This document shows, piece by piece, positions 8,129-54,758 of a stretch of 64,000 nucleotides of DNA. Every line of letters begins with the position of its first letter. Position 1 is the first letter of the stretch. This stretch comes from Ottowia flava (GTDB lineage: Bacteria > Pseudomonadota > Gammaproteobacteria > Burkholderiales > Burkholderiaceae_C). Both the position numbers and the translations under genes were made by a program. A model generated the notes under the pieces. The model saw only the letters and a list, made by a program, of their open reading frames with translations. It had not been told where the DNA came from and made no database searches. The DNA is taken from the NCBI RefSeq assembly GCF_008017535.1, contig NZ_VRUA01000004.1, forward strand, positions 1 through 64,000, given 5' to 3'.

Positions 8129-9027
8129 CGGGCGCGCCGTCGCCCCGCTGGCGGCCGCTGCGCGAGCTGCCACCCGGCGCCTGGCGCGACGTGGTTGGCG
8201 TCTTCACCGACATCGACGACACGCTGACGACCGACGGCGCCATCACGCCCGATGCGCTGACCGCGCTGGCGGAGCTGCGTGCCGCCGGTGTGCACGTGAT
8301 CGCCGTGACCGGCCGCCCGGTCGGCTGGAGCGAGGCCTTCGCCCTCACCTGGCCGCTGGACGCCATCGTGGCCGAGAACGGCGCCGTCGCCCTCGTCCGC
8401 ACGCCGCCCGCGGAGGGCGCAAGCGGGTCCGCTGGCAGCGCACAGATTTCAAGCCAAATCAGGCCGAAGATGGCGCCAGAGCTGCGCCACCAGCTATCAA
8501 AACTGTATATCGATGATGCGCTCACCCGCCAGACCAACTTCGCCCACCTGCGGCGCGTGGCGGCCCGCGTCCTGCGCGAAGTGCCCGGCGCCACACTGGC
8601 GCAGGATTCGCCCGGGCGCGAAACCGACATCGCCGTCGATCACAGCGAATTTGCCCATCTGGGCGACGCGCAGATCGCCCAGGTCGTCGCCCTCATGCGC
8701 GCCGAAGGCCTGCAGGCCACGGTCAGCAGCATCCACATCAACGGCTGGATCGGCGACCACAACAAGTGGGTCGGCGCCTGCTGGATCGCACGCGAACTCC
8801 TCGGCATCGACGACCTGGCGGCGCAGCAGGAGCGCTGGGTCTACATCGGCGACTCCACCAACGACCAGGTGATGTTCGACCACTTCACCCACAGCGTGGG
8901 CGTGGCCAACATCGCGCGCTTTGCAGACCAGTTGCAGACACCGCCGCGCTATGTCACGGCGGGCGAACGCGGCGCCGGTTTCGCCGAAATGGCGCGCCTG
9001 CTGCTGGCGCAGCGCCAAGGCGACTGA
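8125..9027 (+). CDS. HAD-superfamily phosphatase (HAD-IIB type)
   Basis: A 300-residue protein with HAD motif I FTDIDDTLTTDG (nucleophile and acid aspartates, residues about 27-38), motif II VIAVTGRPVGWSE and motif IV GDSTNDQVMFDHF. The cap between them places it with HAD-IIB sugar-phosphate phosphatases such as mannosyl-3-phosphoglycerate or sucrose-phosphate phosphatase; the real substrate is not known. Residues about 108-128 are encoded by a family A repeat and interrupt the region after NGAVALV, so this segment is probably an insertion not found in close relatives. Translation is coupled to the thioesterase gene before it. Confidence 0.8.
   Translation: MTGAPSPRWRPLRELPPGAWRDVVGVFTDIDDTLTTDGAITPDALTALAELRAAGVHVIAVTGRPVGWSEAFALTWPLDAIVAENGAVALVRTPPAEGASGSAGSAQISSQIRPKMAPELRHQLSKLYIDDALTRQTNFAHLRRVAARVLREVPGATLAQDSPGRETDIAVDHSEFAHLGDAQIAQVVALMRAEGLQATVSSIHINGWIGDHNKWVGACWIARELLGIDDLAAQQERWVYIGDSTNDQVMFDHFTHSVGVANIARFADQLQTPPRYVTAGERGAGFAEMARLLLAQRQGD
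8448..8509 (-). repeat. Family A repeat, copy 1 (inside the HAD gene)
   Basis: The reverse strand reads TACAGTTTTGATAGCTG and then GTGGCGCAG, matching other copies over the left half (the first 17 bases are identical to the copy at 54702). It is read through in frame by the HAD gene, without a stop. Confidence 0.75.
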
Positions 9028-9098
9028 AGCTTCGCGCATCCTTGGGCATGATCGGCGCTGCCATCTCGGCACGACCGAACCATGACAGGAGACAACCG

Positions 9099-9551
9099 AT
9101 GCGCTTTCAACGCCTTTCCCGCCTCACCTTGGCCGCCGCCGCCCTGGCCGCCCTCTCTGCCTGCGCCAGCCCGCCGCAATACCTCAACTCCGGCAAGGTG
9201 CTGCCGACCACGCTGCCGTTTTCGGAAGCGGTCAAGGTCGGCAACACGCTGATCCTGTCCGGCCAGATCGGCAATCTGCCGGGCACGCTGAACCTCGCTC
9301 CAGGCGGCATCGCGGGCGAATCGAAGCAGGTCCTGGAGAACATCAAGACCGCGCTGGAGGCGCACGGCTACGCCATGACGGACGTGGTCAAGTGCACCGC
9401 CATGCTGGCCGACATGAAGGAATGGGGCGCCTTTAACGAGGTGTACCAGACCTACTTCCAGAAAGGGCGCTTCCCCGCGCGCAGCGCGTTCGGTGCGTCG
9501 GGCCTGGCGTTCAACGCGCGGGTCGAGCTGGAGTGTCTGGCGGCCAAGTAA
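9099..9551 (+). CDS. RidA-family protein with a lipoprotein signal
   Basis: A 150-residue protein from ATG 9099, with an AGGAG site 7 bp upstream. Residues 1-22 form a lipoprotein signal peptide ending in the lipobox LSAC, and the rest is a YjgF/RidA domain (LILSGQIGN, KQVLENIKTALEAHGY, KCTAMLADMKEWGAFNEVY, FPARSAFGASGLAFNARVEL). RidA proteins are usually cytoplasmic trimers that hydrolyse reactive enamine/imine intermediates, with an arginine in the R-S/T-x-V-G region. Here the corresponding arginine is in FPARSAF. A lipid-anchored periplasmic form is unusual and its substrate is unknown. It starts 71 bp after the HAD gene on the same strand. Confidence 0.85.
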   Translation: MRFQRLSRLTLAAAALAALSACASPPQYLNSGKVLPTTLPFSEAVKVGNTLILSGQIGNLPGTLNLAPGGIAGESKQVLENIKTALEAHGYAMTDVVKCTAMLADMKEWGAFNEVYQTYFQKGRFPARSAFGASGLAFNARVELECLAAK

Positions 9552-9588
9552 GGCGCGGGGCGGTGCCGGCGCCCAACCGGCCCGCACG

Positions 9589-12500
9589 TCAGCCCTGACC
9601 GCGCGCCAGCACCGGCTTCAGCGCCTGGCCGGTGTGCGTGCCCAGGCGCACCACGTCCTCGGGCGTGCCGGCCGCCACCAAACGGCCGCCGCCATCGCCG
9701 CCTTCGGGGCCCAGGTCCAGGATCCAGTCGGCCTCGGCGATCAGGTCGAGGTCGTGTTCGATCACCACCACGCTGTGGCCGCCGTCGACCAGGCGGTGCA
9801 GCACGTGGATCAGCTTTTCGACGTCCTGCATGTGCAGGCCCACCGTCGGCTCGTCCAGCACGTACAGCGTGTGCGGCGCCTTGTTGCCGCGGCGGGTGAC
9901 GTCGTCGCGCACCTTGGCTAATTCGGTCACCAGCTTGATGCGCTGCGCCTCGCCGCCGCTGAGGGTCGGTGAGGGCTGGCCCAGCGTCAGGTAGCCCAGG
10001 CCGACGTCCTTCAACAGCTGCAGCGGGTGCGCGATGTTGGGCATGCTGGCGAAGAATTCCACCGCCTCGTCAACCTCCATCTGCAGCACGTCACCGATGT
10101 TCTTGCCACGCCACGTGACGGCCAGCGTCTCGGGGTTGAAGCGCGCGCCGTGGCAGACCTCACACGGCACCTTCACGTCCGGCAGAAAGCTCATCTCGAT
10201 GGTGCGCATGCCCTGACCTTCACAGCTGGGGCAACGGCCTTCGCCGGTGTTGAAGCTGAAGCGCCCCGGCCCGTAGCCGCGCGCCTTGGCCTCCAGCGTG
10301 TCGGCGAACAGCTTGCGCACCGTGTCCCAGAAGCCGATGTAGGTCGCGGGGCAGCTGCGTGGGGTCTTGCCGATCGGCGTCTGGTCGACTTCCAGCACGC
10401 GGTCGATCTGGCCAAAGCCTTCCAGCGCGGTGCAGCCGATCAGGCCATTGCTATTGATTTCGTAGCTGATCGCGCTGTCTGCTGTAGGGCTAGACGCCTT
10501 TTTCCCTTTCATTTCCTGGCGGACAAAGCGCTGCACGCTGGCCAGCAACACATCGCGCGCCAGGGTGGATTTCCCCGAGCCGGACACGCCCGTCACCGCC
10601 ACCAGGCGCTTCAGCGGCACGGCCACGTCGACGTCCTTCAGGTTGTGCAGGTACGCGCCCTTCAGCGACAGCCAGCCGTCGCCTTCGGTCACCGCGACAG
10701 CCGGTGGCGCGGCACCGACGGCACGGCGCGTGTGCAGCGGGTGACGCATCGCCTCGCGCAGGTAACGCCCGGTGGCCGAATCGGCCGCGGCCGCCACGTC
10801 GGCCACCGTGCCTTGCGCGACCAAATGGCCGCCGCGCACGCCGGCGCCGGGGCCGATGTCGATCACGTGCTCGGCGCGGCGGATGGTGTCTTCGTCGTGC
10901 TCGACCACCACCAGCGTGTTGCCCTTGCTCGACAGGTTGTGCAGCGCGTCCAGCAGGATCTGGTTGTCACGCGCGTGCAGGCCGATGGTCGGCTCATCCA
11001 GCACGTAGCACACGCCCTGCAGGTTGCTGCCCAGCTGCGCCGCCAGGCGAATGCGCTGCGCTTCGCCACCACTGAGCGTGGGCGCGCCGCGGTCGAGCGT
11101 GAGGTAGCCCAGGCCCACCTGCTCCAGAAACGCCAGGCGGCTCAAGATTTCCGGCAGCAGGTCGCGCGCGATGTCGGCGTCGCGCCCTTGCAGTTGCAGG
11201 CCGTCAAACCACTGGTGCAAATCGCGTACCGACAGGCGCGCCAGGTCGGTGATGGCGATGCCGTCCACGCGGCCGCCGTCGCCGCGCGCGGGCGCGCCGT
11301 GCACCGGTGCGTGCAGGCGCACGTGGCGCGCGATCGGGTTCAGGCGCGTGCCCTGGCAGGTTGGGCAGGCGGCGTGGCCGACGTCGTCCACATCGGGTTC
11401 GTCAAAGGTCTGTTCGCGCCCTTTCTGGTCGTCGGCCAGCACCGAATCGTCCAGCGCACGGCGCTGCTCCTTGGTCAGCTTGACGCCGGTGCCGACGCAG
11501 TCGGGGCACCAGCCGTGCTTGCTGTTGTACGAGAACAGGCGCGGGTCCAGCTCCGCATAGCTGGTGGCGCAGACCGGGCAGGCGCGCTTGGTCGAAAACA
11601 CCTCCACGCGGCCGATGCGCGCGGTCGATTCGCCGTGCTCCATGGCGTGGCGCAGGCCGGCGATGTCGTGCAGCACGTGCACCACGCCCTTGCCGTGCTC
11701 CAGCGCGCGCGTCAGCGATTCGCGCAGCTGCGCTTCGTTACCGGGGATGACCGGCAGGCTCATCACCGGCAGCTCGATCGTGTGCTCCTTGAAGCGGTCG
11801 ATGCGCGGGAAGCCCGTGGTCGGCAAGAACTCGCCGTCGACGCGCAGGTGCGTGAAGCCGCGCGGGCGCGCCCAATCGGCCAGCTCGGTGTACACGCCCT
11901 TGCGGCCGACCACCAGCGGCGCCATCAGACCGATGGTCTGGTCGCGAAAGCGCGTCAGGATCTGCGCGGCGATGCGCTCGGGCGTTTGCGGCTGCACCGT
12001 GGCGTCGTCGTGCACGCAGTGCTGCACGCCCAGCTTGACGTACAGCAGGCGCAGGAAGTGCCACACCTCGGTCGTCGTGCCCACCGTGCTCTTGCGGCCG
12101 CCGCGCGACAGGCGCTGCTCGATCGCCACCGTGGGCGGGATGCCGTAGACCGCGTCCACCTCCGGCCGGCCGGCCGGCTGCACGATGGAGCGCGCGTAGG
12201 CGTTCAGCGATTCCAGGTAACGCCGCTGCCCTTCGTTGAACAGGATGTCGAACGCCAGCGTGGACTTGCCCGAGCCGCTGACGCCCGTGATCACGTTGAA
12301 CTTGCCCCGCGGAATGTCGACGCTGAGGTTCTTCAGGTTGTGCTCGCGCGCATGCACGATCTCAATCGCGTTGGAAGCTTTTTCGGCCTCTGGCCCTACA
12401 GCCACTTGCACGGCCAGCTTCGTTTTGTATAGCGGAACAGCTTCGTGCACGGACAGCGGTACGGCCTCGCGCAGCGCCGCCACGTAGGCACGCAGAGCGG

Positions 12501-15468
12501 CGCCGGTGTGCGACGTGGGGTGCTGCGCCACGTCATCCGGCGTGCCCTGCGCGACCACGGTGCCACCGGCGTCGCCGCCTTCGGGGCCGAGGTCGATCAG
12601 CCAGTCGCTGGCGCGCATGACGTCCAGGTTGTGCTCGATCACGACCAGCGAATGCCCCGCCTCCAGCAGCTTGCGGAAGGCCCGCATCAGCTTGGCGATG
12701 TCGTCAAAGTGCAGGCCGGTGGTCGGTTCGTCAAACAGGAACAGTTGGCCCTTCTTGGCCGTGGGTTGGCGGCTGGAGGACTGCGCCTTGGCCGCTTCGG
12801 CCAGGTGGCCGGCCAGCTTCAGGCGCTGCGCCTCGCCGCCGCTCAGCGTCGGCACGGGCTGGCCCAGCTTGACGTAGTCCAGGCCCACGTCAACGATGGG
12901 TTGCAGCGCGCGCAGCACCTCGCGGTCGCGCGCGAACAGCTGCACCGCTTCGGCCACCGTCAGGTCCAGCACGTCGGCCACGTTGAGGTGGCGCGCGCGC
13001 AAATCCTGCGGGCCCTGGCGGTCGATGCGCACTTCCAGAATCTCGGGCCGGTAGCGCTGGCCGTCGCAGTCGGGGCAGCGCAGGTAGACGTCGGAGAGGA
13101 ACTGCATCTCCACATGCTCGAAGCCCGAACCGCCGCAGGTCGGGCAGCGCCCGTCGCCGCTGTTGAAGCTGAACTTGGCCGCGGTGTAGCCGCGCTGCTT
13201 GGACAGCGGCGCGTTGGCGAACAGCGCGCGGATCGTGTCCCACGCGCCGACGTAGCTGACCGGGTTGGACCGCGCCGTCTTGCCGATGGGCGACTGGTCG
13301 ACAAACACCACGCCGCTCAGGTGGTCGGCGCCGAGCAGGCGGTCGTGCGCACCGGGCGTCTCGGTGGCCTGGCCGAAGTGGCGCATCAGCGCCGGCGCCA
13401 GCACGTCCTGGATCAGCGTGGACTTACCCGAGCCGGACACGCCCGTCACCGTGACCAGGCGCTGCAGCGGGAAGTCGACCGACACGTGCTTCAGGTTGTG
13501 CTCGGTCGCGCCTTCCAGAATCAGGCGCGGCGTGCTGTCGCTGACCGGGCGCGCCAGGCCGGTTTCAATGCTGCGGCGCCCGCCGAGGTATTCGCCAGTC
13601 AGCGTGTCGCTGGCGCGCAGGGCCTGCGGCGTGCCGTCGAACACGATGCGCCCGCCCGCCGCGCCGGGGCCGGGGCCGAAGTCCAGCACGCGGTCGGCCG
13701 CCAGCATGACGGCCGGGTCGTGCTCCACCACCACCAGCGTGTTGCCCGCGCGCTTGAGGCGCTGCATGGCTTCGGTGATGCGGTCCATGTCGCGCGGGTG
13801 CAGGCCGATGCTGGGCTCGTCCAGCACGAACAGCGTGTTGACCAGGCTGGTGCCCAGCGCGGTGGTCAGGTTGATGCGCTGCACCTCGCCGCCACTCAGC
13901 GTGCGGCTTTGGCGGTCGAGCGTGAGGTAGCCGATGCCGACGTCGGTCAGGTACTTCAGCCGCGTCTGGATTTCTTCCAGAATCAGCTTGCGCGCCTGCG
14001 CATCGGCCGATTCGGCATTCAATGGGGCGTCAGCCCTTGTAGAATCTGCCCGAACAGCTATCGAATGGGTAGCACCCGCCAATCGGTCAAAGAACTGCCG
14101 CAGCCGGTCGATGGGCAGCAGCATCAGATCGTGCAGGCACAAACCCGGCAGGCTTTCCAGCTGCGCGCGGCTCCACGCCACGCCTTGCGGCAGAAAGCGC
14201 TGCGCGGGCGGCAGCACGGCGTCGGCGTCCGCCTTGCCCCCGACGCGCCACAGCAGCGGCTCGGTCTTCAAGCGCGCGCCGGCGCACACCGGGCACGGCG
14301 TGTAGCTGCGGTACTTGGACAAGAGCACCCGGATGTGCATCTTGTACGCCTTGCTTTCCAGGTACTGGAAGAAGCGGCGGATGCCGTACCACTGCTTGTT
14401 CCAGTTGCCCGCCTTGAAGTTGGGCGTGCCTTCGATGACCCAGGCCTTCTGCTCGGCCGTGAGCTTGTTCCAGGCCGTGTCGCGCGGAATGCCGGCAGCT
14501 TCGGCGTAGCGCATCAGGTCGTCCTGGCACTCCTTCCAGGCCGGAGTCTGGATCGGCTTGACGGCCCCGGCGCGCAGGGTCAGCCGTTCGTCCGGGATGA
14601 CCAGACCCCAGTCCACGCCGATGACACGGCCGAAGCCGCGGCAGGTCTCGCACGCGCCGACCGGCGAGTTGAACGAGAACATGGACGGGATGGGCTCGGC
14701 GTAGCGCAGGTCGCTGTCGGGGCAGTGGAGCCCCGTTGAAAACTTCCACAGATCTGCCGTCCCACCTTCGTCGTCCAGCACGTAGACCGACAGACACCCG
14801 GTGCCCCGATGCAGCGCGACCTCGATCGCCTCCAGCACACGCGCTTTCTCGGCGGTGCCCAGGCGGAAGCGGTCGGCCACCACATCCAGCAGCTTCTTGC
14901 CGCCGTCTCCACGCTCCGCCTGTACGCGCGTGTAGCCGCTGGCGGACAGCCATTGCTCGACCTGCTCGGGCGGCGTGCCGGCGGGCAGTTCCACGGCGAA
15001 GGTCAGCACCACGCGCGGATCGCCGGCGGCGGTGGCGCGTTCGCGCAGCTCGGCATAGATCGTTTCCGGCGTGTCGTGGCGCACCGGTTGGGCGGTTTGC
15101 TTGTCGAACAGCTGGCCGGCGCGGGCGAACAGCAGCTTGAGGTGGTCGTTCAGCTCGGTCATCGTGCCAACCGTGGAGCGCGAGCTGCGCACCGGGTTGG
15201 TCTGGTCGATGGCGATCGCGGGCGGCACCCCCTCCACCTTGTCGACCGCCGGCTTGTCCATGCGGTCGAGAAACTGGCGCGCGTAGGCGCTGAAGGTTTC
15301 GACGTAGCGGCGCTGACCTTCGGCGTACAGCGTGTCGAACACCAGACTGGACTTGCCGGAACCGCTGGGGCCGGTCACCACCGTCATCTCGCCGGTGCGG
15401 ATGTCCAAGTCCAGGTTCTTGAGGTTGTGCTGGCGGGCGCCGCGGATGCGGATCAGGGGGCGCGACAT
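9589..15468 (-). CDS. uvrA: Tandem-duplicated UvrA-like excinuclease ATPase
   Basis: A 1959-residue protein from ATG 15468, about twice the usual UvrA length of 940. UvrA scans DNA for bulky damage and loads UvrB. Four ATPase sites are visible: Walker A at about residues 33-41, 680, 1065 and 1630, with four LSGGE signatures ([27 protein letters not shown] twice). Zinc-type cysteine pairs recur ([32 protein letters not shown]). It therefore reads as two UvrA-like units joined head to tail, with the second starting near residue 1030. Three family A repeats are read in frame, one at the junction. Long UvrA proteins of this kind exist in related bacteria, probably beside a normal UvrA; that gene is not in this window. 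Confidence 0.88.
10447..10505 (+). repeat. Family A repeat, copy 2 (inside uvrA)
   Basis: The sequence reads TTGCTATTGATTTCGTAGCT, then GATCGCGC and TGTAGGGCTAGACGCC. It encodes, on the minus strand, about residues 1654-1674 of the UvrA-like protein ([18 protein letters not shown]), a polar stretch between the fourth Walker A and the [15 protein letters not shown] segment. Confidence 0.75.
12379..12435 (-). repeat. Family A repeat, copy 3 (at the uvrA internal junction)
   Basis: The reverse strand reads CTATACAAAACGAAGCTGG, then CCGTGCAAGTGG and CTGTAGGGCCAGAGGCC, a near-complete match to the family. It encodes about residues 1011-1030, the linker just before the second UvrA unit begins at [12 protein letters not shown]. 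Confidence 0.75.
14014..14077 (-). repeat. Family A repeat, copy 4 (inside uvrA)
   Basis: The reverse strand reads GTGCTACCCATTCGATAGCT, then GTTCGGGCAG and AAGGGCTGACGCC. It encodes about residues 464-485 of the UvrA-like protein, between FFDRLAG and [11 protein letters not shown], a place where shorter relatives should have no extra sequence. Confidence 0.7.
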
Positions 15469-15538
15469 GGGTGCGGCTGGGGTGTAACGGCTGGGGGACA
15501 AAAATTCTATGCCCGTCCCATGTCGGGGCGCTCCGGCC

Positions 15539-15565
15539 AAAAAAAAGCCCGCACGAGGCGGGCTT
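15539..15565 (-). terminator. Rho-independent terminator after the MHS transporter gene
   Basis: An 8-bp perfect stem (15545-15552 with 15558-15565, 5-nt loop) is followed on the minus strand by eight T (15539-15546, overlapping the stem foot). It lies 60 bp after the transporter stop and just upstream of the uvrA start, so it separates the two genes. Confidence 0.85.
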
Positions 15566-15624
15566 CAAGTGATGTGGCCGAGTGCCGCCGGGCTAACCAG
15601 CCCGACTGGCACTCCAGCTTTCCG

Positions 15625-31117: not shown

Positions 31118-31165
31118 GTCTATTGTTTTGATAGCTGTCTGCGCAGGCCCCACTAGGGCTCAGGC
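31118..31165 (+). repeat. Family A repeat, copy 10
   Basis: The sequence reads TCTATTGTTTTGATAGCTG, then TCTGCGCAGG and CACTAGGGCTCAGGCC. It fills the gap between the acyl-CoA synthetase stop and the carboxylase beta start and slightly overlaps the end of the synthetase gene. Confidence 0.75.
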
Positions 31166-32866
31166 CGTCTTTTGTTCAGAAATACCCAATTCTTCGACCA
31201 TCGCGTCGCGGATCTTGAACTTCTGGATCTTGCCGGTCACCGTCATCGGGAATTCCTCCACGAAGCGGATGTAGCGCGGCACCTTGTAGTGCGCGATCTT
31301 GCCCTTGCAGAAGTCGCGCACGCCGTCCTCATGAAGCGTCTGGCCGGGTTTGACGACGATCCATGCGCACAGCTCTTCACCGAACTTGGTGTCGGGGATG
31401 CCGACGACCTGCACGTCCTGCACCTGCGGGTGGCGGTACAGAAATTCTTCGATCTCGCGCGGGTACACGTTTTCGCCGCCGCGGATCACCATGTCCTTGC
31501 TGCGCCCGACGATGTTGACGTAGCCCTCGTCGTCCATGGTGGCCAAATCGCCCGTGTGCATGTAGCCCTCGGCGTCGATCGCCTCGCGCGTGCGCGTGGG
31601 GTCTTCCCAATAACCCTGCATCACCGAATAGCCCTTGGTGCACAGCTCGCCTGTGGCGCCGCGCGGCAGGGTGGCGCCGGTCTCGGGGTCGATGATCTTC
31701 ACCTCCAGGTGGGGCTGCACCAGACCGACGGTGGATACGCGCTTGTCCAGCGGGGTGTCGGTGCTGCTCTGGCAGCTGACGGGGCTGGTTTCGGTCATGC
31801 CGTAAGCGATGGTGACTTCGCCCATGTTCATGTCGCGCTGCACGCGCTTCATCACCTCGATCGGGCACGGGCTGCCGGCCATGATGCCGGTGCGCAGCGT
31901 GGACAGGTCGAACTCGGCAAAGCGCGGGTGATCCAGCTCGGCAATGAACATGGTGGGCACGCCGTGCAGGCCGGTGCACTTTTCTGCCTGCACGGTCTGC
32001 AGCACGCTGAGCGGCTCGAACGCGTCGTTCGGGTAGACGATGCAGGCGCCGTGCGTCAGCACCGCCAGGTTGCCCAGCACCATGCCAAAGCAGTGGTACA
32101 GCGGCACGGGGATGCACAGGCGGTCTTCCTGCGTCAGCTTCATGGCTTCGCCGATGAAGAACCCGTTGTTCAGGATGTTGCGGTGCGTCAGCGTCGCGCC
32201 CTTGGGGAAGCCCGTGGTGCCGCTGGTGAACTGCAGGTTGATGGGGTCGGTGTTGTGCAGCAGGCGCGCGGTGCTGGCCAGGCGCGGGTCCTGCGGGTCG
32301 CCGCTTTTGAGCAGGTCCGAAAAGCGCGCAAAGCTGGAATGCTCGGCGCCCTCGCCCGCCACGTCAATCCAGAACACGTGCTTCAAATAAGGCAGCTTCT
32401 CACTGCTGAGTTCGCCCGACGCCTGGCCGGCCCATTCGGGCGCCAGCTCCCGCAGCATGCCGATGTAGTCGCTGGTCTTGAAGGTGGGCATGGTCACCAG
32501 CGCGGCGCAGCCGACCTTGTTCAGCGCGTATTCGACCTCGGCCGTGCGGTAGGCCGGGTTGATGTTGACCAGCACCAGACCGACCTTGGCGGTGGCCAGC
32601 TGCATCAGCACCCATTCGGTGTTGTTGTGCGACCAGATGCCGACGCGGTCGCCCGGCTTGAGCCCCAGGCCCAGCAGCGCGCTGGCCAGGCGGTTGACTT
32701 CGGTCTGCAACTGGCGGTAGGTGTAGCGGCGCTGCTGGTGCACCACGACCAGCGCTTCGCGCTCGGGCACGCGCTCCACCATGGCGTCGAAGAACGCGCC
32801 AATGGTTTGCTCGATCAGCGGCGGCTGATCCGCGCCGCGCGCATAGCTGTCGGAACCGGTGGCCAT
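31160..32866 (-). CDS. AMP-binding acyl-CoA synthetase
   Basis: A 568-residue member of the ANL family. It has the P-loop-like [18 protein letters not shown], the A5 motif [11 protein letters not shown], the [15 protein letters not shown] and [20 protein letters not shown] motifs of the hinge, and the catalytic lysine in [12 protein letters not shown]. It makes acyl-CoA from a fatty acid, ATP and CoA through an acyl-adenylate. As the first gene of the minus-strand liu cluster it may activate isovalerate or another medium/branched acid; the substrate is inferred. ATG 32866 has AAGGAG upstream. A divergent AraC-type regulator starts 150 bp away. Confidence 0.9.
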
Positions 32867-33016
32867 CTCGCCTGTCTCCTTGTGTTCGCCCTACCCTGGC
32901 GCTGGGGGCCACTTTAGCCAATCGGCGTGACCTCGCGCGACAGCTTACGCCGATCGCTCTCGTCTTTGGTGCCAGCACGGTTGCAGATTGCGCCAAGCTT
33001 TGCCACACTGCCCACC

Positions 33017-34033
33017 ATGCCCTTGCGCACCGATTCCACGGCCCGCCGTACGCCTTGGCCTTTCGTTGAAGCCGTGCTGCATGCGTACGCGGCGCGCGGG
33101 TTGGACCCCGCGCCAGCACTGCTGGCAGCACATATTGCGCCAGACGCCAATGGCAACTGGCCCGCCCGTGTGTCGGCCCTGCAGTTCGAGCGCCTGTGCG
33201 CCGCCGCCATGCATGCGCTGGACGACGAGGCGCCCGGCTGGTTCAGCCGCCCGCTGGCCTGGGGCAGCTACGGCCTGCTGGCGCGCGCCTCGCACAGCGC
33301 GCCCACGCTGGGCGTGGCGCTGGGCCGCTGGTGCCGCCACCACGGCCTGCTGACGCGCGACGTCACCCTGCAGCTGACCGATGCCGGCGGCGTGGCCGAA
33401 GTGCGCATCGACGAACACCGGGCGATGGGTGCGGTGCGCGAATTCGCGCTGACATCGCTCCTGCGCAACGTGCACGGCCTGGCTTGCTGGTGGGTCGATT
33501 CGGCCATCGCGCTGCAGCGCGCCGACTTCCCCTTTGCCGCGCCCGCGCACGCCGAGGTGTACGACACGCTGTTCCCCGGCCCGGTGCGCTTCGGCGCGCC
33601 GCACGCCGCGCTGCGCTTTGACGCGGCCTACCTCGGGCTGCCGCAGCGCCGAGACGCCGCCGCGCTGGACCAGATGCTGCGCCGCGCGCTGCCGCTGATG
33701 GTGCTGCCCTACCGGCGCGACCGCCTGCTGGCGCTGCGCGTGCGCCAGCGCCTGCACGAGCGGCCGACCCACACCGCCACCACGCTGGCGGCCGAGCTGG
33801 CGCTGTCGCCGCGCAGCCTGCACCGCCAGCTGGCGGCCGAGGGCACGCAGCTGCAAACCCTGAAGGACGAAGCGCGCCGCGCGCACGCAACAGAGCTGCT
33901 GCTGCGCACCCAGCAACCCATGAAGCAAGTCGCGCACGCCGCCGGTTTTGGCAACGACAAGAGCTTCATCCGCGCCTTTCGCAGCTGGACCGGCCAGACG
34001 CCGGAGGCGTTTCGCGCACGGGGTACGCGGTGA
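33017..34033 (+). CDS. AraC-family transcriptional regulator
   Basis: A 338-residue regulator from ATG 33017. The N-terminal 200 residues resemble the Arabinose_bd/OruR-type ligand domain (FERLCAAAMHALDDEAPGWF, WGSYGLLARASHSAPTLGVA). The C-terminal 100 residues hold the two AraC helix-turn-helix motifs (TTLAAELALSPRSLHRQLAA and MKQVAHAAGFGNDKSFIRAF, ending RSWTGQTPEAFR). Since it diverges from the acyl-CoA synthetase gene across 150 bp, it is the likely regulator of the liu cluster, probably responding to an acid or acyl-CoA; that role is inferred. Confidence 0.85.
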   Translation: MPLRTDSTARRTPWPFVEAVLHAYAARGLDPAPALLAAHIAPDANGNWPARVSALQFERLCAAAMHALDDEAPGWFSRPLAWGSYGLLARASHSAPTLGVALGRWCRHHGLLTRDVTLQLTDAGGVAEVRIDEHRAMGAVREFALTSLLRNVHGLACWWVDSAIALQRADFPFAAPAHAEVYDTLFPGPVRFGAPHAALRFDAAYLGLPQRRDAAALDQMLRRALPLMVLPYRRDRLLALRVRQRLHERPTHTATTLAAELALSPRSLHRQLAAEGTQLQTLKDEARRAHATELLLRTQQPMKQVAHAAGFGNDKSFIRAFRSWTGQTPEAFRARGTR

Positions 34034-34157
34034 TTGGCGGAGGCAGAGAGGCCACGCGTTCACCGCGCCGCGAGCGTGTGCGAATCGGCCGCCGCGCAGG
34101 CCTTGCGCGGCCGCTGTCGCCCGCGCGCCAGTGCGGCCTTGGCGAAGGCGGAGTTTC

Positions 34158-34222
34158 ATGATCAAAATGGCCTCTGGCGCTACAACCATCTGCGCAAGCA
34201 GCTTCTGTTTTTGTAGCATTTA
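34158..34222 (-). repeat. Family A repeat, copy 11
   Basis: The reverse strand reads AAATGCTACAAAAACAGAAG, then CTGCTTGCGCAGATGGTTGT and AGCGCCAGAGGCCATTTTGA. This is one of the best-preserved full-length copies, lying between the AraC gene and the amidase gene. Confidence 0.85.
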
Positions 34223-44756: not shown

Positions 44757-44795
44757 GTTGCGGGCGTGCCGGACGAGCTGCCCGGCAGCGGCGCC

Positions 44796-45255: not shown

Positions 45256-46437
45256 ATGAGCTTCGCCCCCTTGACCAACGACACCTTCTTGCGCGCCTGC
45301 CTGGGGCAGGCGACCGATCACACCCCCGTCTGGCTGATGCGCCAGGCCGGCCGCTATCTGCCGGAGTACTGCGCCACGCGCGCGCAGGCCGGCAGCTTCA
45401 TGGGCCTAGCCACCAACGTGGACTATGCGACCGAGGTCACGCTGCAGCCGCTGGCGCGCTACCCGCTTGACGCGTCGATCCTGTTTTCCGACATCCTCAC
45501 CGTGCCCGACGCCATGGGCCTGGGCCTGTCCTTTCAGCAGGGCGAAGGCCCGAAGTTTGAAAAAGTGGTGCGCGACGAGGCCGCCGTGGCCCAACTGGCC
45601 GTGCCCGACATGGACAAGCTGCGCTACGTATTCGACGCCGTGACCAGCATCCGCAAGGCGCTGAACGGGCGCGTGCCGCTGATCGGCTTTTCGGGCAGCC
45701 CCTGGACGCTGGCCTGTTACATGGTCGAAGGCGGCGGCAGCAGCGATTACCGCCACGTCAAGACGCTGATGTACGCGCGGCCCGATCTGATGCACCGCGT
45801 GCTGGAAATCAACGCCGACGCGGTCGCGCTGTACCTGAACCACCAGATCGACGCCGGCGCGCAGGCGGTGATGGTGTTCGACAGCTGGGGTGGCGTGCTG
45901 GCCGACGGCGCTTTCCAAGCGTTCAGCCTGGCCTACACGCGGCGCGTGCTGGCGCAACTGAAGCGCAACGGGCGCGACGGCGCGGTGGTGCCCCGCATCG
46001 TCTTCACCAAAGGCGGCGGCCTGTGGCTGGGCGAGATGACGGGGCTGGACTGCGACGTGCTGGGCCTGGACTGGACCATGAACCTGGGCCAAGCGCGCCA
46101 GATCGTGCGCCAGGCAGCGGCAAATGCTACACAAAACATAGCTGCTTGCGCAGATGGTTCTAGGGCTGACGTCACAAAAGACACCCCATCGACTGTGCCC
46201 AAGGCGCTGCAGGGCAATATCGACCCGAACGTGCTGTTTGCCCCGCCCGACGCCATCCGCGCCCAGGTGCGGCAGGTGCTGGACAGCTTTGGCACGCCGC
46301 ACACCGACCGCAGCGCGCCCGGAAGCACGCACATCTTCAACCTGGGCCACGGCATCAGCCAGTTCACGCCGCCGGAGCACGTGTCGCACCTGGTGGACGA
46401 GGTGCACGCCTATTCGCGCCGTTTGCGTCAAGGCTGA
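45256..46437 (+). CDS. hemE: Uroporphyrinogen decarboxylase with a repeat-encoded insertion
   Basis: A 393-residue enzyme that removes four carboxyl groups from uroporphyrinogen III to give coproporphyrinogen III in haem synthesis. Both signatures are present: [13 protein letters not shown] near the start and [16 protein letters not shown] around residues 140-155. Usual length is 350-370. The excess is a stretch of about 28 residues, [20 protein letters not shown] and what follows up to [10 protein letters not shown], read from a family A repeat at 46123-46180. It lies in a surface region before the conserved LQGNIDP motif, so the enzyme is probably still active; this is inferred. Confidence 0.92.
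46123..46180 (+). repeat. Family A repeat, copy 14 (inside hemE)
   Basis: The sequence reads AATGCTACACAAAACATAGC, then TGCTTGCGCAGATGGTTCTA and GGGCTGACG. It is read through in frame by hemE and adds about 20-28 codons. Confidence 0.85.
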
Positions 46438-46701: not shown

Positions 46702-46710
46702 TTATCCACA
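46702..46710 (+). promoter_or_regulatory. Candidate DnaA box 2 (upstream of priA)
   Basis: A perfect TTATCCACA, in the same orientation as the box 177 bp upstream and 27 bp before the priA start. It may couple priA expression to DnaA. Confidence 0.45.
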
Positions 46711-46736
46711 GATTCTGGGCATGAACGAACAAGCGA

Positions 46737-48917: not shown

Positions 48918-49080
48918 CCTGGGCCCACGGGCAGTTCGCGGCCTTGTCCGACATGCCCACCATGCCGCCCGGCCTAGACTGCTGCGTGGAAGGTCGGCGG
49001 CGTACCCTGCGGTGCGCCCTGATGCCCGTACAAGCGCCGCGCTGGGACGCGGCCCACCCGATTGGAGAAAGGAAATCCCC

Positions 49081-49449: not shown

Positions 49450-49483
49450 CGCCCTCGCTGAGAGGACGCGCTGTGGGCCTCTC

Positions 49484-49521
49484 CAAAAAAATGGTCTTGC
49501 CAACGCGGCAAGGCCGTTTTT
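49484..49521. terminator. Bidirectional terminator after the exported-protein gene
   Basis: A 9-bp stem (49493-49501 with 49507-49515, one G-T pair, 5-nt loop) is preceded by seven A and followed by GTTTTT. It serves the gene ending at 49449 and, on the other strand, the AEC transporter gene ending at 49551. Confidence 0.85.
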
Positions 49522-49550
49522 CTATTGGGCTGAGCGTGCTGAACGAGCGT

Positions 49551-50531: not shown

Positions 50532-50600
50532 GGTGTCCGCGGCGGGTGCGGCATCCCGTGGGCGCCGCGTGCCGTCTGGCCGATCATGCCACGCCGCGCA

Positions 50601-51227
50601 TCAGCCGGTTTCTGGCCGGCGCGCCTCGATGCCCAGCAAGGCGTCCTTGAGATTGCTGTCCACGGGCTTGGGACCCAACCAGATGCGGGCCACGGCGCCG
50701 AAGTAGGTCGGGTCGGTCACCACTTCGCCTTTTTGGACGCCGTCGACGTAGAAGATCGTGCCCTTGCCGGGGACGAAGTCGATCACAACCTCGGACCCTG
50801 GCGAGACGCTGGGTTCGGCCTGGAAGATGCGGGTCAGCCGGTCCATGTGCGGAATCAGCTTGAGGCGTTCGCCCGGCGCGGCGTTGTCCTGCATGCCCTG
50901 CACCATGGCCACGCCGAGCGAATCGCCCGTCAGCGTCCGCAATGGGACGATCAGCAAGCGCTTGGGGCCGGGGGCGGCCAGCAGTTGCTCCAGGCTCGAG
51001 ACCTTGGTGCCCACGTACAGCCCAATGTCGTACACCTTGATGATGGCGCGGTAGCGTGTGCCCTTGCCGTTCAACCGCAGGTTCTGTCCTGCGAGCTGGA
51101 GCGAAGGAGGGAGCCCACCCCGCGCAGAAGCTTCGCGCGCCGGTGCTGCGGCTTGTTGCGCACAGACGGGCCCACCCAACACCGTGGCCGCGGCCACCAG
51201 CCATCCGAAAACGCCTACCGATCTCAT
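50601..51227 (-). CDS. Exported chalcone-isomerase-like protein
   Basis: A 208-residue protein with a signal peptide (GVFGWLVAAATVLGGPVCAQ). The mature part has the bacterial CHI-like pattern LRLNGKGTRYRAIIKVYDIG, LYVGTKVSSLEQLLAAPGPK, and a late FYVDGVQKGEV and TYFGAVARIWLG. The fold resembles plant chalcone isomerase, but bacterial secreted members lack flavonoid substrates; their role is unknown. It stands between the AEC transporter gene and the divergent helicase gene rep. Confidence 0.8.
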   Translation of the reverse strand: MRSVGVFGWLVAAATVLGGPVCAQQAAAPAREASARGGLPPSLQLAGQNLRLNGKGTRYRAIIKVYDIGLYVGTKVSSLEQLLAAPGPKRLLIVPLRTLTGDSLGVAMVQGMQDNAAPGERLKLIPHMDRLTRIFQAEPSVSPGSEVVIDFVPGKGTIFYVDGVQKGEVVTDPTYFGAVARIWLGPKPVDSNLKDALLGIEARRPETG

Positions 51228-51434
51228 GTTTGTCCGCTCCTTTGTCCCTTGAGGAAACGTGCTGCCTACCGCAGCGCGCCCGCCAGCGAATTGCTACCAA
51301 CCGCAGCGCCCAATTTTTAGGCCAATCGCCCCAGGCCTCCCGCTGTCCTGCACACTTTTTTCTACGATTGGTGAACAAGTTGGCGCCTGTGTCGCACGAC
51401 CGACGGCCGGACGCCGCACGCTAAGATTCGGCTT

Positions 51435-53516
51435 TTGCCCCAGCCAGCTGTTTTGTCCGATCACGGTCTCAATCTCGCGCAACAGGATGCCGTCAACCAT
51501 CTGCGGGGGCCGTGTCTGGTTCTGGCGGGCGCCGGCTCCGGCAAGACACGGGTGATCACCCACAAGATCGCCCGCCTGATCGAATGCGGCGTCGCCCCAA
51601 AACGCATCGCTGCGATCACCTTCACCAACAAGGCCGCCGCTGAAATGCGCGAGCGCGCGCGCGGCCTCGTCGGCAAGGCGGCGAGCCAGGTGCTGATCTG
51701 CACCTTCCACGCACTGGGGGTGCGCCTGATGCGAGAAGACGGTGCGGCCATGGGCCTCAAGCCGCAGTTCAGCATCCTCGACAGCGACGATGTGCTGTCC
51801 CTGCTCAAGGACTGCGGTGCCACCACCGATGCCGCCACCGCGCGCCAATGGCAATGGACGATCAGCCGGTGGAAGAACGCGGGCTGGACGTCCGCCGAAG
51901 CGCGCGCGCAAGCCCAGTCGGAAGGCGAGCGCCAGACGGCCGAGTTGATGGCCCGTTACGAAGAGCGCCTGGCCGCCTACCAGAGCGTGGACTTCGACGA
52001 TCTGATCGGCCTGCCCTTGCGTATGCTACGAAAAGATGAGCTGCTTGCGCAGAAATGGCAAGCGCGACTGGCGCATACGCTGGTAGACGAATACCAGGAC
52101 ACCAACGCCACGCAGTACGAATTGATGAAGCTACTGGTGGGCAGCGCGGGCAACTTCACCGCGGTGGGAGACGATGACCAGAGCATCTACGGCTGGCGCG
52201 GCGCCACGCTGGACAACCTCAAGCGGCTGCCGCAGGACTACCCGGCGCTGAAGGTGATCAAGCTGGAGCAGAACTACCGCTCCACCAGCGCCATCCTGCG
52301 CGCGGCCAACAACGTGATCGGCCCGAACCCGAAACTGTTCCCGAAGACGTTGTATTCCGAATTGGGGGAAGGCGAGCCCGTGCGCGTGGTCGACAGCGAC
52401 CACGAGCAGCACGAGGCGGACCGCGCCGTGATGCGCATCCAATCGCTGCGTCAAACCTCACCCCACAAGGAATGGCGCGACTTTGCCATCCTCTACCGCG
52501 CCAACCACCAGGCGCGCGTGCTGGAACAGGCCTTGCGCCGCGCCCAGATCCCCTACAAGGTCACCGGGGGCCAGAGCTTTTTTGACCGCGCCGAGATCAA
52601 GGACCTGTGCGCCTGGCTGCGGCTGTGGATCAACGAAGACGACGACCCCGCCTTTCTGCGCGCCATCACCACGCCCAAGCGCGGCATCGGCCACCAGACG
52701 CTGGCGCAGCTGGGCGACTTTGCCAGCCGTTCGCACCTGTCGCTGTTTAGCGCGCTGTTCGCCCAGTCGCTGGCGGGCACACTGCCTGCGCGTGCCGTCG
52801 GCAGTCTGCAGGAATTCGGGCGGGAGGTGAACGATTTGCGCTACCGCGCCGGACAGACCCTGGGGCACGAAGCCGCGCGCACGTTCCTCAGCGACTGGCT
52901 CAAGGCGCTGGGTTACGAGCAGTACCTGTACGACAGCGAGGACAGTGAAACCGTGGCGGCCTCGCGCTGGTCGAACGTGCTGGAGTTCTGCGACTGGATG
53001 GCCGGGCGCTGCGGCGGGCAGATCGACGACACGGCGGGCACCACCACGTCGCGCGAGCTCAGCTCCTTGCTGGAAGTGGCGCAGACCGTGTCATTGATCT
53101 CCACCCTGGGGGAGCGTGAGCAGGACCCGAACATGGTCACCTTGTCCACACTGCACGCCGCCAAGGGCCTGGAGTGGCCGCACGTGATTCTCGCCGGCGT
53201 CGTCGAGGGCATGCTGCCCTTCCGCCCTGACGAAGACGCCAGCGCCGCCACGCTGGCCGCACGGATCGAAGAGGAGCGGCGCCTGATGTACGTCGGCATC
53301 ACCCGTGCCCGCAACACGCTCGCCGTGAGCTGGACGCGCCGCCGCAAGAAGGCGCGCGAGCTGGTGCCCGCCCTGCCGAGTCGCTTCATCGCCGAAATGG
53401 CGCTGGACCAGGCCACGGTGCGCGAAGATCCGCGCGAAAAGCTCAAGGCCTTGCGTGCCGAATTCGCCCAGCGCGCCCAACAACAAGCCGCCGCATCGGC
53501 GGCGCCGCCCAACTGA
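51435..53516 (+). CDS. rep: Rep-type superfamily 1 DNA helicase
   Basis: A 693-residue 3'-5' helicase from TTG 51435. All SF1 motifs are visible: Q motif LNLAQQDAVNHL, Walker A LAGAGSGKTRVIT, Ia TFTNKAAAEM, II LVDEYQDTN, III GDDDQSIYGWRGA, IV LEQNYRST, V TLSTLHAAKGLEWPHV and VI YVGITRAR. The length (about 670 for E. coli Rep) and the sequence after motif II fit Rep rather than UvrD. Rep removes protein blocks ahead of forks. Codons at 52022-52058 resemble part of a family A repeat. The stop overlaps the next gene's ATG by one base. Confidence 0.9.
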   Translation: MPQPAVLSDHGLNLAQQDAVNHLRGPCLVLAGAGSGKTRVITHKIARLIECGVAPKRIAAITFTNKAAAEMRERARGLVGKAASQVLICTFHALGVRLMREDGAAMGLKPQFSILDSDDVLSLLKDCGATTDAATARQWQWTISRWKNAGWTSAEARAQAQSEGERQTAELMARYEERLAAYQSVDFDDLIGLPLRMLRKDELLAQKWQARLAHTLVDEYQDTNATQYELMKLLVGSAGNFTAVGDDDQSIYGWRGATLDNLKRLPQDYPALKVIKLEQNYRSTSAILRAANNVIGPNPKLFPKTLYSELGEGEPVRVVDSDHEQHEADRAVMRIQSLRQTSPHKEWRDFAILYRANHQARVLEQALRRAQIPYKVTGGQSFFDRAEIKDLCAWLRLWINEDDDPAFLRAITTPKRGIGHQTLAQLGDFASRSHLSLFSALFAQSLAGTLPARAVGSLQEFGREVNDLRYRAGQTLGHEAARTFLSDWLKALGYEQYLYDSEDSETVAASRWSNVLEFCDWMAGRCGGQIDDTAGTTTSRELSSLLEVAQTVSLISTLGEREQDPNMVTLSTLHAAKGLEWPHVILAGVVEGMLPFRPDEDASAATLAARIEEERRLMYVGITRARNTLAVSWTRRRKKARELVPALPSRFIAEMALDQATVREDPREKLKALRAEFAQRAQQQAAASAAPPN
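52022..52058 (+). repeat. Possible partial family A repeat, copy 15 (inside rep)
   Basis: The sequence reads TATGCTACGAAAAGATGAGC and then TGCTTGCGCAGAAATGG, a good match to the left half of the family only. It encodes MLRKDELLAQKW just before motif II. It could be chance similarity in a conserved helix, as the right half of the repeat is missing. Confidence 0.45.
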
Positions 53517-53986
53517 TGCCATTGTCTATTCGCACCTTTGTCGCACGTGCCGCCTTGCTCGCCGCAGTCGCCGCGCTCACCGCCTGTGCCGGCGCGCCGA
53601 CCTCTGTGGCCAACGACGTCAATCAGTCCGACTGCGCCGACGTGCGCACGCTGCGCGCGGGCCAGTTGTACGGCACCTGGGAGCTGGAGCTCACCGCCTT
53701 GAACCAGCGCGGCCAACTCACGCTGCGCCAGCACCCCGAGTTCAGCGAAAGCCTTCGCGGGGAATTCCGCTACGGTGACCAGCGCTCCATTGCTTCCGGC
53801 GACGTGGAAGCAGGCGAGTTCAATCTGGACGAATCGCTCGATGGCAAAAGTCTGCACGCGTTCTGGAGCGGGAAGCTGACCCCAAGTGCCTGTGGTGCAG
53901 AGATTCGGGGCACCTGGCAGACTTTGGCCCAACCGGGCAAGCCCGCGCAGGAAAGCCCGTTTGTGTTGCGCCGTGGCGGGCATTGA
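53516..53986 (+). CDS. Small lipoprotein of unknown function
   Basis: A 156-residue protein with a lipoprotein signal (LLAAVAALTACAG, lipobox LTAC at residues about 21-24). The mature part contains a beta-rich domain (YGTWELELTALNQRGQLTLR, SGDVEAGEFNLDESLDGKSL, CGAEIRGTWQTLAQ) with two further cysteines. I do not recognise the family with confidence. The start overlaps the rep stop by one base, so it is translated from the rep mRNA. A terminator lies about 127 bp downstream but serves the opposite strand as well. Confidence 0.7.
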   Translation: MPLSIRTFVARAALLAAVAALTACAGAPTSVANDVNQSDCADVRTLRAGQLYGTWELELTALNQRGQLTLRQHPEFSESLRGEFRYGDQRSIASGDVEAGEFNLDESLDGKSLHAFWSGKLTPSACGAEIRGTWQTLAQPGKPAQESPFVLRRGGH

Positions 53987-54112
53987 GCGGCACCGCAGGC
54001 AAGCCTGATTTGCCCCGACGCCGTCCGCAGCGATCCCAGCGCACGCCGCAGTCATACACACCCTCGCCTCACGGGATTTTGCCGCCCACTCCACACTGCT
54101 GAGCCGCCCAAC

Positions 54113-54141
54113 AAAAAAGCCCACCAGATGGTGGGCTTTTT
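54113..54141. terminator. Bidirectional terminator between the lipoprotein and tRNA genes
   Basis: A perfect 11-bp stem (54115-54125 with 54130-54140, 4-nt loop) with A and T flanks. It ends transcription of the initiator tRNA (and any upstream ribosomal mRNA) on the minus strand, 10 bp after the tRNA, and of rep/lipoprotein on the plus strand. Confidence 0.9.
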
Positions 54142-54150
54142 CTTGCAACT

Positions 54151-54227
<77 letters not shown>

Positions 54228-54249
54228 GTAAGCTAATAAGTATAACAGA

Positions 54250-54636
54250 TTATTCGGCTTTGGGTGCATCCGTCGCTTCAGCGCGGTCCACCAATTCGAC
54301 GAAAGCCATCGGCGCGTTATCGCCGACGCGGTAGCCCATCTTCAGGATGCGCGTGTAGCCGCCCGGACGTGCCTTGAAGCGCGGACCCAGATCGGTGAAC
54401 AGCTTGGCCACGCTGGCGTCATCGCGCAGGCGGGCAAACGCCAGACGGCGATTGGCCACGCTGTCGACCTTGCTCAGCGTGATCATGGGCTCGATCACTT
54501 TACGCAGTTCCTTGGCCTTGGGGACCGTGGTCTTGATCGCTTCGTGGGCGATCAGCGAGTTCATCATGTTGCGCAGCATCGCCAGACGGTGCGAGCTGGT
54601 GCGGTTGAGTTTGCGAAGGCCGAGACCGTGACGCAT
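54250..54636 (-). CDS. rplQ: 50S ribosomal protein L17
   Basis: A 128-residue protein (start [20 protein letters not shown], core [20 protein letters not shown]) of the large subunit near the exit of the peptide tunnel. It is the last protein gene of the alpha operon, after rpoA. The gap to rpoA is 125 bp, longer than usual here, and holds a family A repeat; the initiator tRNA follows 22 bp downstream. The length and sequence are typical of proteobacterial L17. Confidence 0.97.
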
Positions 54637-54701
54637 GGTGCTTTTTCCTTTATTTGCTTGTTAAGAGGACCGCCGTATCAGGTACGGCCCTTGCACTTGA
54701 A

Positions 54702-54758
54702 AACTACAGTTTTGATAGCTGCCCGCGCAGATTGCACTAGGGCGGAAATCCCAAAACG
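54702..54758 (+). repeat. Family A repeat, copy 16 (between rpoA and rplQ)
   Basis: The sequence reads TACAGTTTTGATAGCTGCCC, then GCGCAGATTGCACTAGGGCG and GAAATCC. It is inserted within the ribosomal operon, in the leader of rplQ (relative to transcription it is in reverse orientation). Confidence 0.85.

What the first reader, a model, noticed from the sequence alone, without database searches (positions are those of the whole stretch)
8448..54758. Family A: about 16 copies of a short dispersed repeat in 64 kb, several of them inside conserved genes
Copies share the order GCTA(T/C)nnAAA ... (T/A)AGCTGC(T/C)(T/C)GCGCAGATGG ... TAGGGC ... GAGGCC over about 50-65 bp and occur in both orientations (listed as repeat features). 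That is roughly one per 4 kb. Most lie between genes, but some lie in conserved coding sequence without breaking the frame. I recall similar sequences between genes in Comamonadaceae, but know of no accepted name or function. In-frame insertion into proteins has a precedent in the Rickettsia palindromic elements. A non-autonomous mobile or spreading element with a tolerated reading frame is the simplest reading.
Basis: partly seen in the sequence, partly recalled or inferred. Interest (0 to 1): 0.75.

Follow-up and report, generated by a model that had tools for sequence, protein, structure and literature searches.

The report
Genome-wide 65-base signal motif, uptake-like
The short repeat is one of over a thousand copies (by extrapolation) of a fixed-length double-stranded DNA motif in this bacterium and two relatives, also found in several other Comamonadaceae; it is evenly spaced, often keeps its place between species, and changes a few letters genome-wide from species to species, so it behaves more like a DNA self-recognition (uptake) signal than like a jumping element.

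Summary
The repeat is real: 15 copies in the window (13 strong, 2 weaker), none in controls. Unbiased 400-kb samples of this genome and two congeners give 134, 135 and 133 copies, about 1,200-1,400 per genome by extrapolation.

It is not a simple mobile insert. Copies keep a 65-nt register; those of this genome are at most 82% alike. Where synteny could be traced, most sit at orthologous positions in congeners (137 of 192 comparisons), and they are spaced too evenly for chance. Pooled, they ignore gene orientation. Pairing in putative stems is near chance. A few central columns carry a species 'dialect' that copies at shared sites follow (for example 24 of 29 and 29 of 29). Some coding copies align gaplessly to orthologues lacking the motif, others go with extra length, so origin is mixed. 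The genome's RAYT gene is flanked by a different repeat.

Best explanation (about 0.55): a long DNA-uptake-type self-recognition motif kept by molecular drive, like DUS/USS of Neisseriaceae and Pasteurellaceae. Sequence-selective natural transformation is reported in Comamonadaceae (PMC4212676); the parts I read name no signal. Function is inferred, not shown.

The parts
8446..8510 (-). motif copy (weaker), inside ORF 8125-9027
   Evidence: 32.6 bits; orthologous copies in G011, G014, G023
10449..10513 (+). motif copy, antisense in uvrA-like gene 9589-15540(-)
   Evidence: 61.9 bits; shared with G011, G016, absent in G014, G023, G017; outgroups 7 aa shorter in 47 of 84
12370..12434 (-). motif copy, sense in uvrA-like gene, variable linker
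   Evidence: 49.9 bits; shared with G011, G016, G014, G023, absent in G017
14010..14074 (-). motif copy, sense in uvrA-like gene, variable linker
   Evidence: 50.6 bits
17849..17913 (-). motif copy
   Evidence: 47.6 bits
18799..18863 (-). motif copy
   Evidence: 33.4 bits
23511..23575 (-). motif copy; shared with G011, G016
   Evidence: 58.6 bits
27908..27972 (+). motif copy; a syntenic copy in 13 of the 16 congeners compared here (absent in G012, G004, G009)
   Evidence: 56.1 bits
31118..31182 (+). motif copy overlapping the 3' end of ORF 31160-32866(-); shared, central word differs between genomes
   Evidence: 50.7 bits
34154..34218 (-). motif copy at the start of ORF 32945-34219(-)
   Evidence: 69.7 bits
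37697..37761 (-). motif copy
   Evidence: 67.3 bits
42857..42921 (+). motif copy just upstream of or overlapping the start of the next gene
   Evidence: 68.6 bits
46125..46189 (+). motif copy inside ORF 45256-46437(+); shared with G011, G016, G014, G023
   Evidence: 54.6 bits
52024..52088 (+). weak motif copy inside a UvrD/PcrA-like helicase ORF 51435-53516(+) (family name recalled from the sequence); gapless to a G023 orthologue lacking it
   Evidence: 30.2 bits
54702..54766 (+). motif copy
   Evidence: 55.2 bits

Best explanation
The repeats are instances of a genome-wide, double-stranded, sequence-specific recognition motif about 65 bp long: A/T tract, nearly fixed AGC and GCGC core blocks, A/T tracts on the 3' side. 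The likeliest mechanism is that of DNA uptake sequences. A sequence-specific receptor of the natural-transformation machinery (perhaps a type IV minor pilin such as the ComP family) prefers DNA carrying the motif; imported fragments recombine into the chromosome; sites that match better therefore spread (molecular drive), and when receptor specificity drifts all sites follow, giving species dialects. Shown here: copy number, fixed register, orthologous placement, dialect at shared sites, even spacing, no pooled orientation preference, pairing near chance. Inferred: that a protein reads it, that the process is DNA uptake, and which receptor it is.
For: 134/135/133 copies per 400 kb in three species, 0 reversed. 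137 of 192 syntenic comparisons have one orthologous same-orientation copy (comparisons share loci). Dialect: columns 27, 28, 36, 39 agree within a genome beyond between-genome non-orthologues by +0.26, +0.20, +0.16, +0.16, most others near 0; at those four, orthologues are only 0.03-0.10 above non-orthologues; profiles trained on copies without a called orthologue assign shared copies to their own genome 16/18 and 18/18, 24/29 and 29/29, 13/16 and 14/16 by 7 columns. Even spacing: neighbours <500 bp 5, 8, 5 vs 33.2, 31.5, 30.2 under an intergenic-matched null. Orientation: tandem gaps 103 co-oriented vs 112 opposite; coding 69 sense vs 65 antisense (sums over five samples). Watson-Crick counts in 21 putative pairs close to expectation. 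A/T tracts pure A or pure T more than expected at cols 7-10 and 51-54. Gapless ladder of match scores in one carboxylase-like gene: 40, 31, 23, 3, -23, -29, -47, -49 across 8 genomes; 983 sampled 65-mers median -75, maximum -19. 64 non-coding orthologue pairs: AGC and first GCGC 0.98 identical, second GCGC 0.75, 30-nt flanks 0.35-0.38, not gap-corrected. Convergent gaps denser than divergent. ComP_DUS family present in G000. Natural transformation in Comamonadaceae: Verminephrobacter eiseniae (T4P-dependent, selective binding) and Acidovorax temperans (own-species DNA only) (PMC4212676, abstract, passages, section 21).
Against: 65 bp and 52-54 bits is far longer than known uptake motifs (9-10 bp cores; 31 bp with tracts). 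USS evolve by point mutation and are not inserted (PMC7811141 passage), but here many copies go with extra length: median +56.5 bp intergenic, 7-19 aa in many UvrA outgroup comparisons, 110 gapped vs 106 gapless coding comparisons. Competence PF03772 (52 of 60 genomes) and ComP_DUS PF16732 (51 of 60) occur also in motif-free congeners such as G012, so no gene tested tracks the motif. The 55 non-dialect columns also assign orthologues partly to their own genome. Single samples deviate in orientation (G014b coding 28 vs 15; G000a tandem 5 vs 16). Columns 28 and 36, a putative pair, are dependent in G000 (Z 10) though Watson-Crick is 0.20 vs 0.17 expected. I did not test the motif in A. temperans or V. 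eiseniae, and no uptake experiment on it is known to me.
Confidence: 0.55

Rival explanations
1. An old non-autonomous mobile element (MITE/REPIN-like) that inserted about a thousand times in a Comamonadaceae ancestor and has since decayed; coding copies survive where in frame.
For: Extra length at many copy sites; lineage-restricted distribution; preference for intergenic and linker positions; a few identical copies in the G011 and G014 samples (maximum 1.00).
Against: Decay would not leave AGC and the first GCGC 91-100% fixed beside free columns (though a profile favours such copies), nor shift the same columns in parallel at shared sites, nor give even spacing, nor gapless gain or loss in conserved proteins. 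No terminal repeats by eye.
Confidence: 0.15
2. A binding site of an abundant chromosome-organising or topology protein (nucleoid protein, gyrase-type site), spaced evenly by selection and placed at gene ends where supercoils meet.
For: No pooled orientation preference, A/T-tract flanked, evenly spaced, dense between convergent genes, pairing near chance.
Against: A selected network of over a thousand sites should resist change of specificity, yet dialects differ between congeners, and near-complete congeners G012, G024 and G027 gave no match (none either in 120 kb of G012 and 25 kb of G024).
Confidence: 0.2
3. REP elements moved by the resident RAYT (Y1_Tnp) transposase.
For: One Y1_Tnp gene in the genome; 5 of 9 RAYT loci examined have a copy at the gene's 3' end; ATAG/GTAG-like word.
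Against: G017 (99% complete, 71 matches), G005 and G021 have no Y1_Tnp match while motif-free G012 has one. The 9 loci share gene and downstream flank, so the 3' copy is one inherited site. In L031 the gene is flanked by inverted CTGACCCC(A/C)ATT boxes, a different repeat. Pairing near chance.
Confidence: 0.05
4. A structured RNA or transcript-end signal.
For: Palindrome-like GCGC...GCGC centre; enrichment near convergent gene ends; dependence of columns 28 and 36 in G000.
Against: No Rfam match at gathering score in the window except a tRNA; Watson-Crick pairing near expectation; no pooled orientation preference relative to genes.
Confidence: 0.05

Closest known systems
DNA uptake sequences (DUS) of Neisseriaceae and their dialects (Frye 2013, PMC3630211; abstract and passages seen)
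   Same: Thousands of copies per genome, dialects around a core shared by all, family members without any, copies inside genes
   Different: DUS is a 10-mer (12-mer recalled); this is 65 nt and degenerate; uptake function not shown here; no proven receptor
Uptake signal sequences (USS) of Haemophilus influenzae (PMC7811141; passages seen)
   Same: Core plus A/T tracts, relatively even distribution, under-represented in coding and newly acquired DNA, lineage variants, point-mutational evolution (here in part)
   Different: Length; many copies here go with extra length
REP/REPIN elements and RAYT transposases (listing seen; one paper searched for genus names)
   Same: High copy number, intergenic preference, palindrome-like centre
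   Different: No RAYT correlation, pairing near chance, not clustered, a different repeat flanks the RAYT
BRE, beta-proteobacterial repeat element (Hot 2011, PMC3110155; abstract and passages seen)
   Same: Repeat reported also from Comamonadaceae, some copies inside genes
   Different: BRE in Bordetella is 75-91 bp, 69% GC, at some loci in tandem (VNTR); this is 65 bp, 51.5% GC, usually single, about 3 kb apart. Sequences were not compared
Rickettsia palindromic elements (recalled; listing seen)
   Same: Repeat tolerated in frame inside proteins
   Different: Here several frames are used and most copies are not wholly inside genes

Membership tests
DNA uptake sequence (DUS/USS) | Hundreds to thousands of over-represented copies | tested here: met
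   133-135 per 400 kb, 0 control
DNA uptake sequence (DUS/USS) | Lineage dialects with a shared core | tested here: met
DNA uptake sequence (DUS/USS) | Even spacing, both strands, no orientation preference | tested here: met
   (large samples G000, G011, G014; the small G023 sample is not significant; single samples deviate in orientation)
DNA uptake sequence (DUS/USS) | Arises by point mutation in place, not insertion | tested here: inconclusive
   106 gapless, 110 gapped, 40 at alignment edges of 256 coding comparisons; intergenic length excess
DNA uptake sequence (DUS/USS) | Depleted in newly acquired DNA and coding sequence | tested here: inconclusive
   Coding depletion clear; GC correlation as a proxy for acquired DNA weak, rho 0.39, 0.21, 0.35, P 0.013, 0.187, 0.027
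DNA uptake sequence (DUS/USS) | Promotes DNA uptake via a specific receptor | not testable with these tools
   ComP_DUS family in 51 of 60 genomes incl. motif-free ones
REP/RAYT | Co-occurrence with a RAYT gene | tested here: not met
   G017, G005, G021 carry the motif without Y1_Tnp; G012 the reverse
REP/RAYT | RAYT flanked by the same repeat | tested here: inconclusive
   a motif copy at the 3' end in 5 of 9 loci, one inherited site, but other boxes flank the gene on both sides in L031
REP/RAYT | Hairpin with conserved pairing | tested here: not met
MITE | Terminal inverted repeats and target duplications | tested here: inconclusive
   no terminal repeats by eye in the logo; no duplications seen, but divergence limits the test
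BRE (Hot 2011) | About 90 bp, 69% GC, tandem at some loci | tested here: not met
   65 nt, 51.5% GC, mean spacing about 3 kb; sequences not compared
Structured RNA family | Rfam match or covariation | tested here: not met

The most novel reading that the evidence does not exclude
Comamonadaceae have an independently evolved DNA uptake signal, as far as my searches show the first outside Neisseriaceae and Pasteurellaceae, several times longer than those known to me, with species dialects that rewrite about a thousand shared sites in concert and so set the species barrier to transformation.
Probability: 0.45. Interest if true: 0.92.

Novelty: new variant of a known kind. Interest (0 to 1): 0.85.

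Why it matters
If it is an uptake signal it would be a third origin of self-DNA recognition, and a candidate for the unnamed sequence behind the selective transformation reported in Acidovorax and Verminephrobacter (PMC4212676). If it is not, a fixed 65-bp double-stranded motif at over a thousand evenly spaced sites that changes in concert between species still needs a driver, and no element class I know explains it.

Tried and rejected
RNA or ssDNA hairpin: the first covariance model found only 2 pairs and within-genome pairing is near chance. RAYT/REP: no correlation, other flanking boxes. Simple insertion with precise borders: not found. Single tolerated frame: rejected. Competence and ComP genes as discriminators: present in motif-free genomes too. 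PF11773 was misremembered as ComP; it is ComGE, 0 of 60 genomes. An early impression that whole second hairpins are overwritten was narrowed to a few dialect columns. Literature: motif strings gave one unrelated paper; 'uptake sequence' + Comamonadaceae + 'natural transformation' gave none; in the listings only BRE came near; none of six taxon names in PMC3733652, and of six taxon names only Bordetella in PMC2267715. 'Not in print' rests only on these searches of an open-access library.

Weak points: gene calls come from a simple caller of mine; comparisons share loci and are not independent; relatives are unnamed; genome counts are capped (150, 81, 150 scored). Before the dependence test 1 of 172 (G011) and 3 of 134 (G014) copies were dropped as near-duplicates or at sample edges. 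Copies with indels score low in an ungapped profile; in the half-motif test paired halves always had offset 0, but 122 of 240 and 92 of 212 (cut 22) and 108 of 221 and 68 of 188 (cut 24) first-half hits had no second half and were not followed up. Model R2 used 90 of 94 listed copies (four of seven Comamonas testosteroni copies left out) and contains copies from five of the named genomes then searched (Acidovorax, Comamonas x2, Simplicispira, Polaromonas CG_9.7), so those are not independent finds. G022: 10-13 copies in 110 kb with 1 reversed hit.

Full report
Observation. The window (66% GC) lies in an unnamed 4.12-Mb genome, G000. Its nearest UvrA relatives in the named collection are Burkholderiales, mostly Comamonadaceae genera (family placement of the genera recalled). 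The repeat is a 65-column motif; a consensus over several genera is TGCTACnnAATnnATAGCTGCTnGCGCnnGnnnnnCnAGCGCTnGAGGCCnATTTnnCnnnAAAn. The window holds 15 copies with no control hits. Exact cores: 39 in the genome, 0 in the reversed control. Profiles re-trained on unbiased 400-kb samples give 134 copies in G000, 135 in G011 and 133 in G014, each with 0 reversed hits. With the 47 copies of another 164 kb that extrapolates to about 1,200-1,400 in G000.

Distribution. In the relatives scan 24 of 60 genomes match at E<=0.001, in 5 of 32 genera; near-complete congeners G012, G024 and G027 have none (the model is tuned to G000, so other dialects may be undercounted; a profile scan of 120, 77, 25 and 19 kb of G012, G004, G024 and G009 also found none). 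Five Variovorax genomes have 1-21, Xenophilus azovorans 12, Rubrivivax gelatinosus and Pseudorhodoferax 1 each. Ramlibacter, Pseudacidovorax, Giesbergeria, Roseateles, Rivibacter, Ralstonia, Cupriavidus, Pandoraea and Limnohabitans, one genome each, have 0. Two other genera of the family sampled at 200 kb give 35 (G032) and 21 (G031) copies.

Not a set of recent copies. Mean pairwise identity within a genome is 0.52-0.53. In G000 the maximum among 184 copies is 0.82; the G011 and G014 samples hold identical pairs (maximum 1.00), in G014 at least partly in a duplicated gene, collapsed before the dependence test. Paired halves of the motif are always in the same register (118/118 and 120/120). 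Conservation is very uneven: AGC 99-100%, first GCGC 91-100%, many neighbours free (large samples; a profile search favours such copies). In 64 non-coding orthologous pairs AGC and the first GCGC are 0.98 identical, the second GCGC 0.75, the 30-nt flanks 0.35-0.38 without gap correction.

Shared places, concerted letters. Of 192 syntenic comparisons among five genomes, 137 have one orthologous copy in the same orientation, 44 none, 7 only an inverted one, 4 are ambiguous (sums). At most columns orthologues resemble each other more than non-orthologues, as in vertical descent. Columns 27, 28, 36 and 39 (and weakly 34, 35, 37, 20-22) instead agree within each genome. Commonest central words: AGA/AGG...TAG in G000, TTG...CAAG in G014, AGG/TGG/TTG mixed in G011, CC...GG in a small G016 sample (15 copies). 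Profiles trained only on copies without a called orthologue assign shared copies to the right species (16/18 and 18/18; 24/29 and 29/29; 13/16 and 14/16). The 55 remaining columns carry a signal of the same kind, weaker per column.

Double-stranded and orientation-free. In 21 putative pairs and three genomes Watson-Crick counts are close to what column composition predicts, with small deviations either way; columns 28 and 36 are dependent in G000 (Z 10) with Watson-Crick 0.20 against 0.17 expected and G-T 0.53. Strong column dependence is mainly between neighbours (of pairs with Z>4, 41 of 114, 29 of 90 and 46 of 113 are more than 3 columns apart), with pure A or pure T tracts favoured over mixed ones. 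Inside genes 69 copies are sense and 65 antisense; in tandem gaps 103 point with the genes and 112 against (sums over five samples; single samples deviate, for example G014b 28 vs 15 and G000a 5 vs 16). Copies are depleted in coding DNA (36 of 137 wholly inside genes in G000b, coding fraction 0.86) and denser between convergent than divergent genes (30 in 8.1 kb vs 8 in 10.9 kb, G000b; counts include copies overlapping gene ends).

Even spacing. Neighbours closer than 500 bp number 5, 8 and 5 in the three large samples, against 33.2, 31.5 and 30.2 expected when positions are redrawn with the same coding/intergenic split. The two mid-sized samples agree (1 vs 8.8 and 1 vs 6.8); for the small G023 and G016 samples this count is not significant (P 0.12, 0.09).

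Origin of copies is mixed. Of 256 coding comparisons 106 are gapless, 110 gapped and 40 at alignment edges. Some gapless cases show a ladder of match quality across species in one carboxylase-like gene (name recalled from the sequence; G014 40, G011 31, G023 23, G022 3, G012 -23, G004 -29, G016 -47, G000 -49; 983 sampled 65-mers median -75, maximum -19). But UvrA linkers with strong copies are often 7-19 aa longer than in outgroups, and intergenic spaces with a copy are a median 56.5 bp longer than in motif-free G012/G004 (n=28, quartiles -22 and +150; copy-free controls 0, n=53; over all one-versus-none pairs +24, n=55). I found no exact borders or target duplications. Coding copies use several phases; in the sense phase where TAG would fall in frame, 25 of 26 copies lack the T, while 293 of 356 copies not wholly inside genes have it.

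Mechanism. A double-stranded motif with a near-fixed core, dialect letters, even spacing and no pooled orientation preference is what biased DNA uptake with molecular drive is said to produce in Haemophilus and Neisseria (PMC7811141 and PMC3630211, passages). Natural transformation is reported for Verminephrobacter eiseniae (T4P-dependent, selective binding) and for Acidovorax temperans and A. facilis, A. temperans only with DNA of its own species; two other Acidovorax species gave no transformants; the abstract, passages and section I read name no signal sequence (PMC4212676). I did not test those strains for the motif. I therefore favour an uptake-type signal at 0.55. Not shown: any protein reading the motif, any uptake effect, and how a 65-nt, 52-54-bit motif was first seeded. 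PF03772 and ComP_DUS occur also in motif-free genomes, so receptor identity is open. Rivals are given separately.

Noticed in passing
L031:1336-2278 (G000:C23 near 30025): The genome's one Y1_Tnp/RAYT-like gene is flanked by inverted CTGACCCC(A/C)ATT boxes (1436-, 2218+, 2267+, up to 2 mismatches), a separate REP-like family; inverted box pairs 57-61 bp apart occur in L095 (11576-/11633+) and L097 (12076-/12137+), both within the uvrA match.
   Followed up: partly
window 9589-15540 and UvrA orthologues L066, L070, L073, L079, L084, L098: The variable linkers of the double-length UvrA hold other in-frame repeat-like inserts in relatives (PSPSGGG...GEG, GSDP-type, SLRGTKQSM...RVARNDA): a hot spot for different small repeats, not analysed further.
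   Followed up: no
G000:C12:165812-180413 (L173-L174): 14.6-kb copy-free stretch of 57.3% GC in a 66.7% GC sample, possibly an acquired island.
   Followed up: no
G060:C24:45947-53843 (Acidovorax sp. GW101-3H11): Six listed co-oriented copies within 8 kb, two only about 300 bp apart, against the even spacing elsewhere; perhaps a repetitive gene.
   Followed up: no
   Followed up: no
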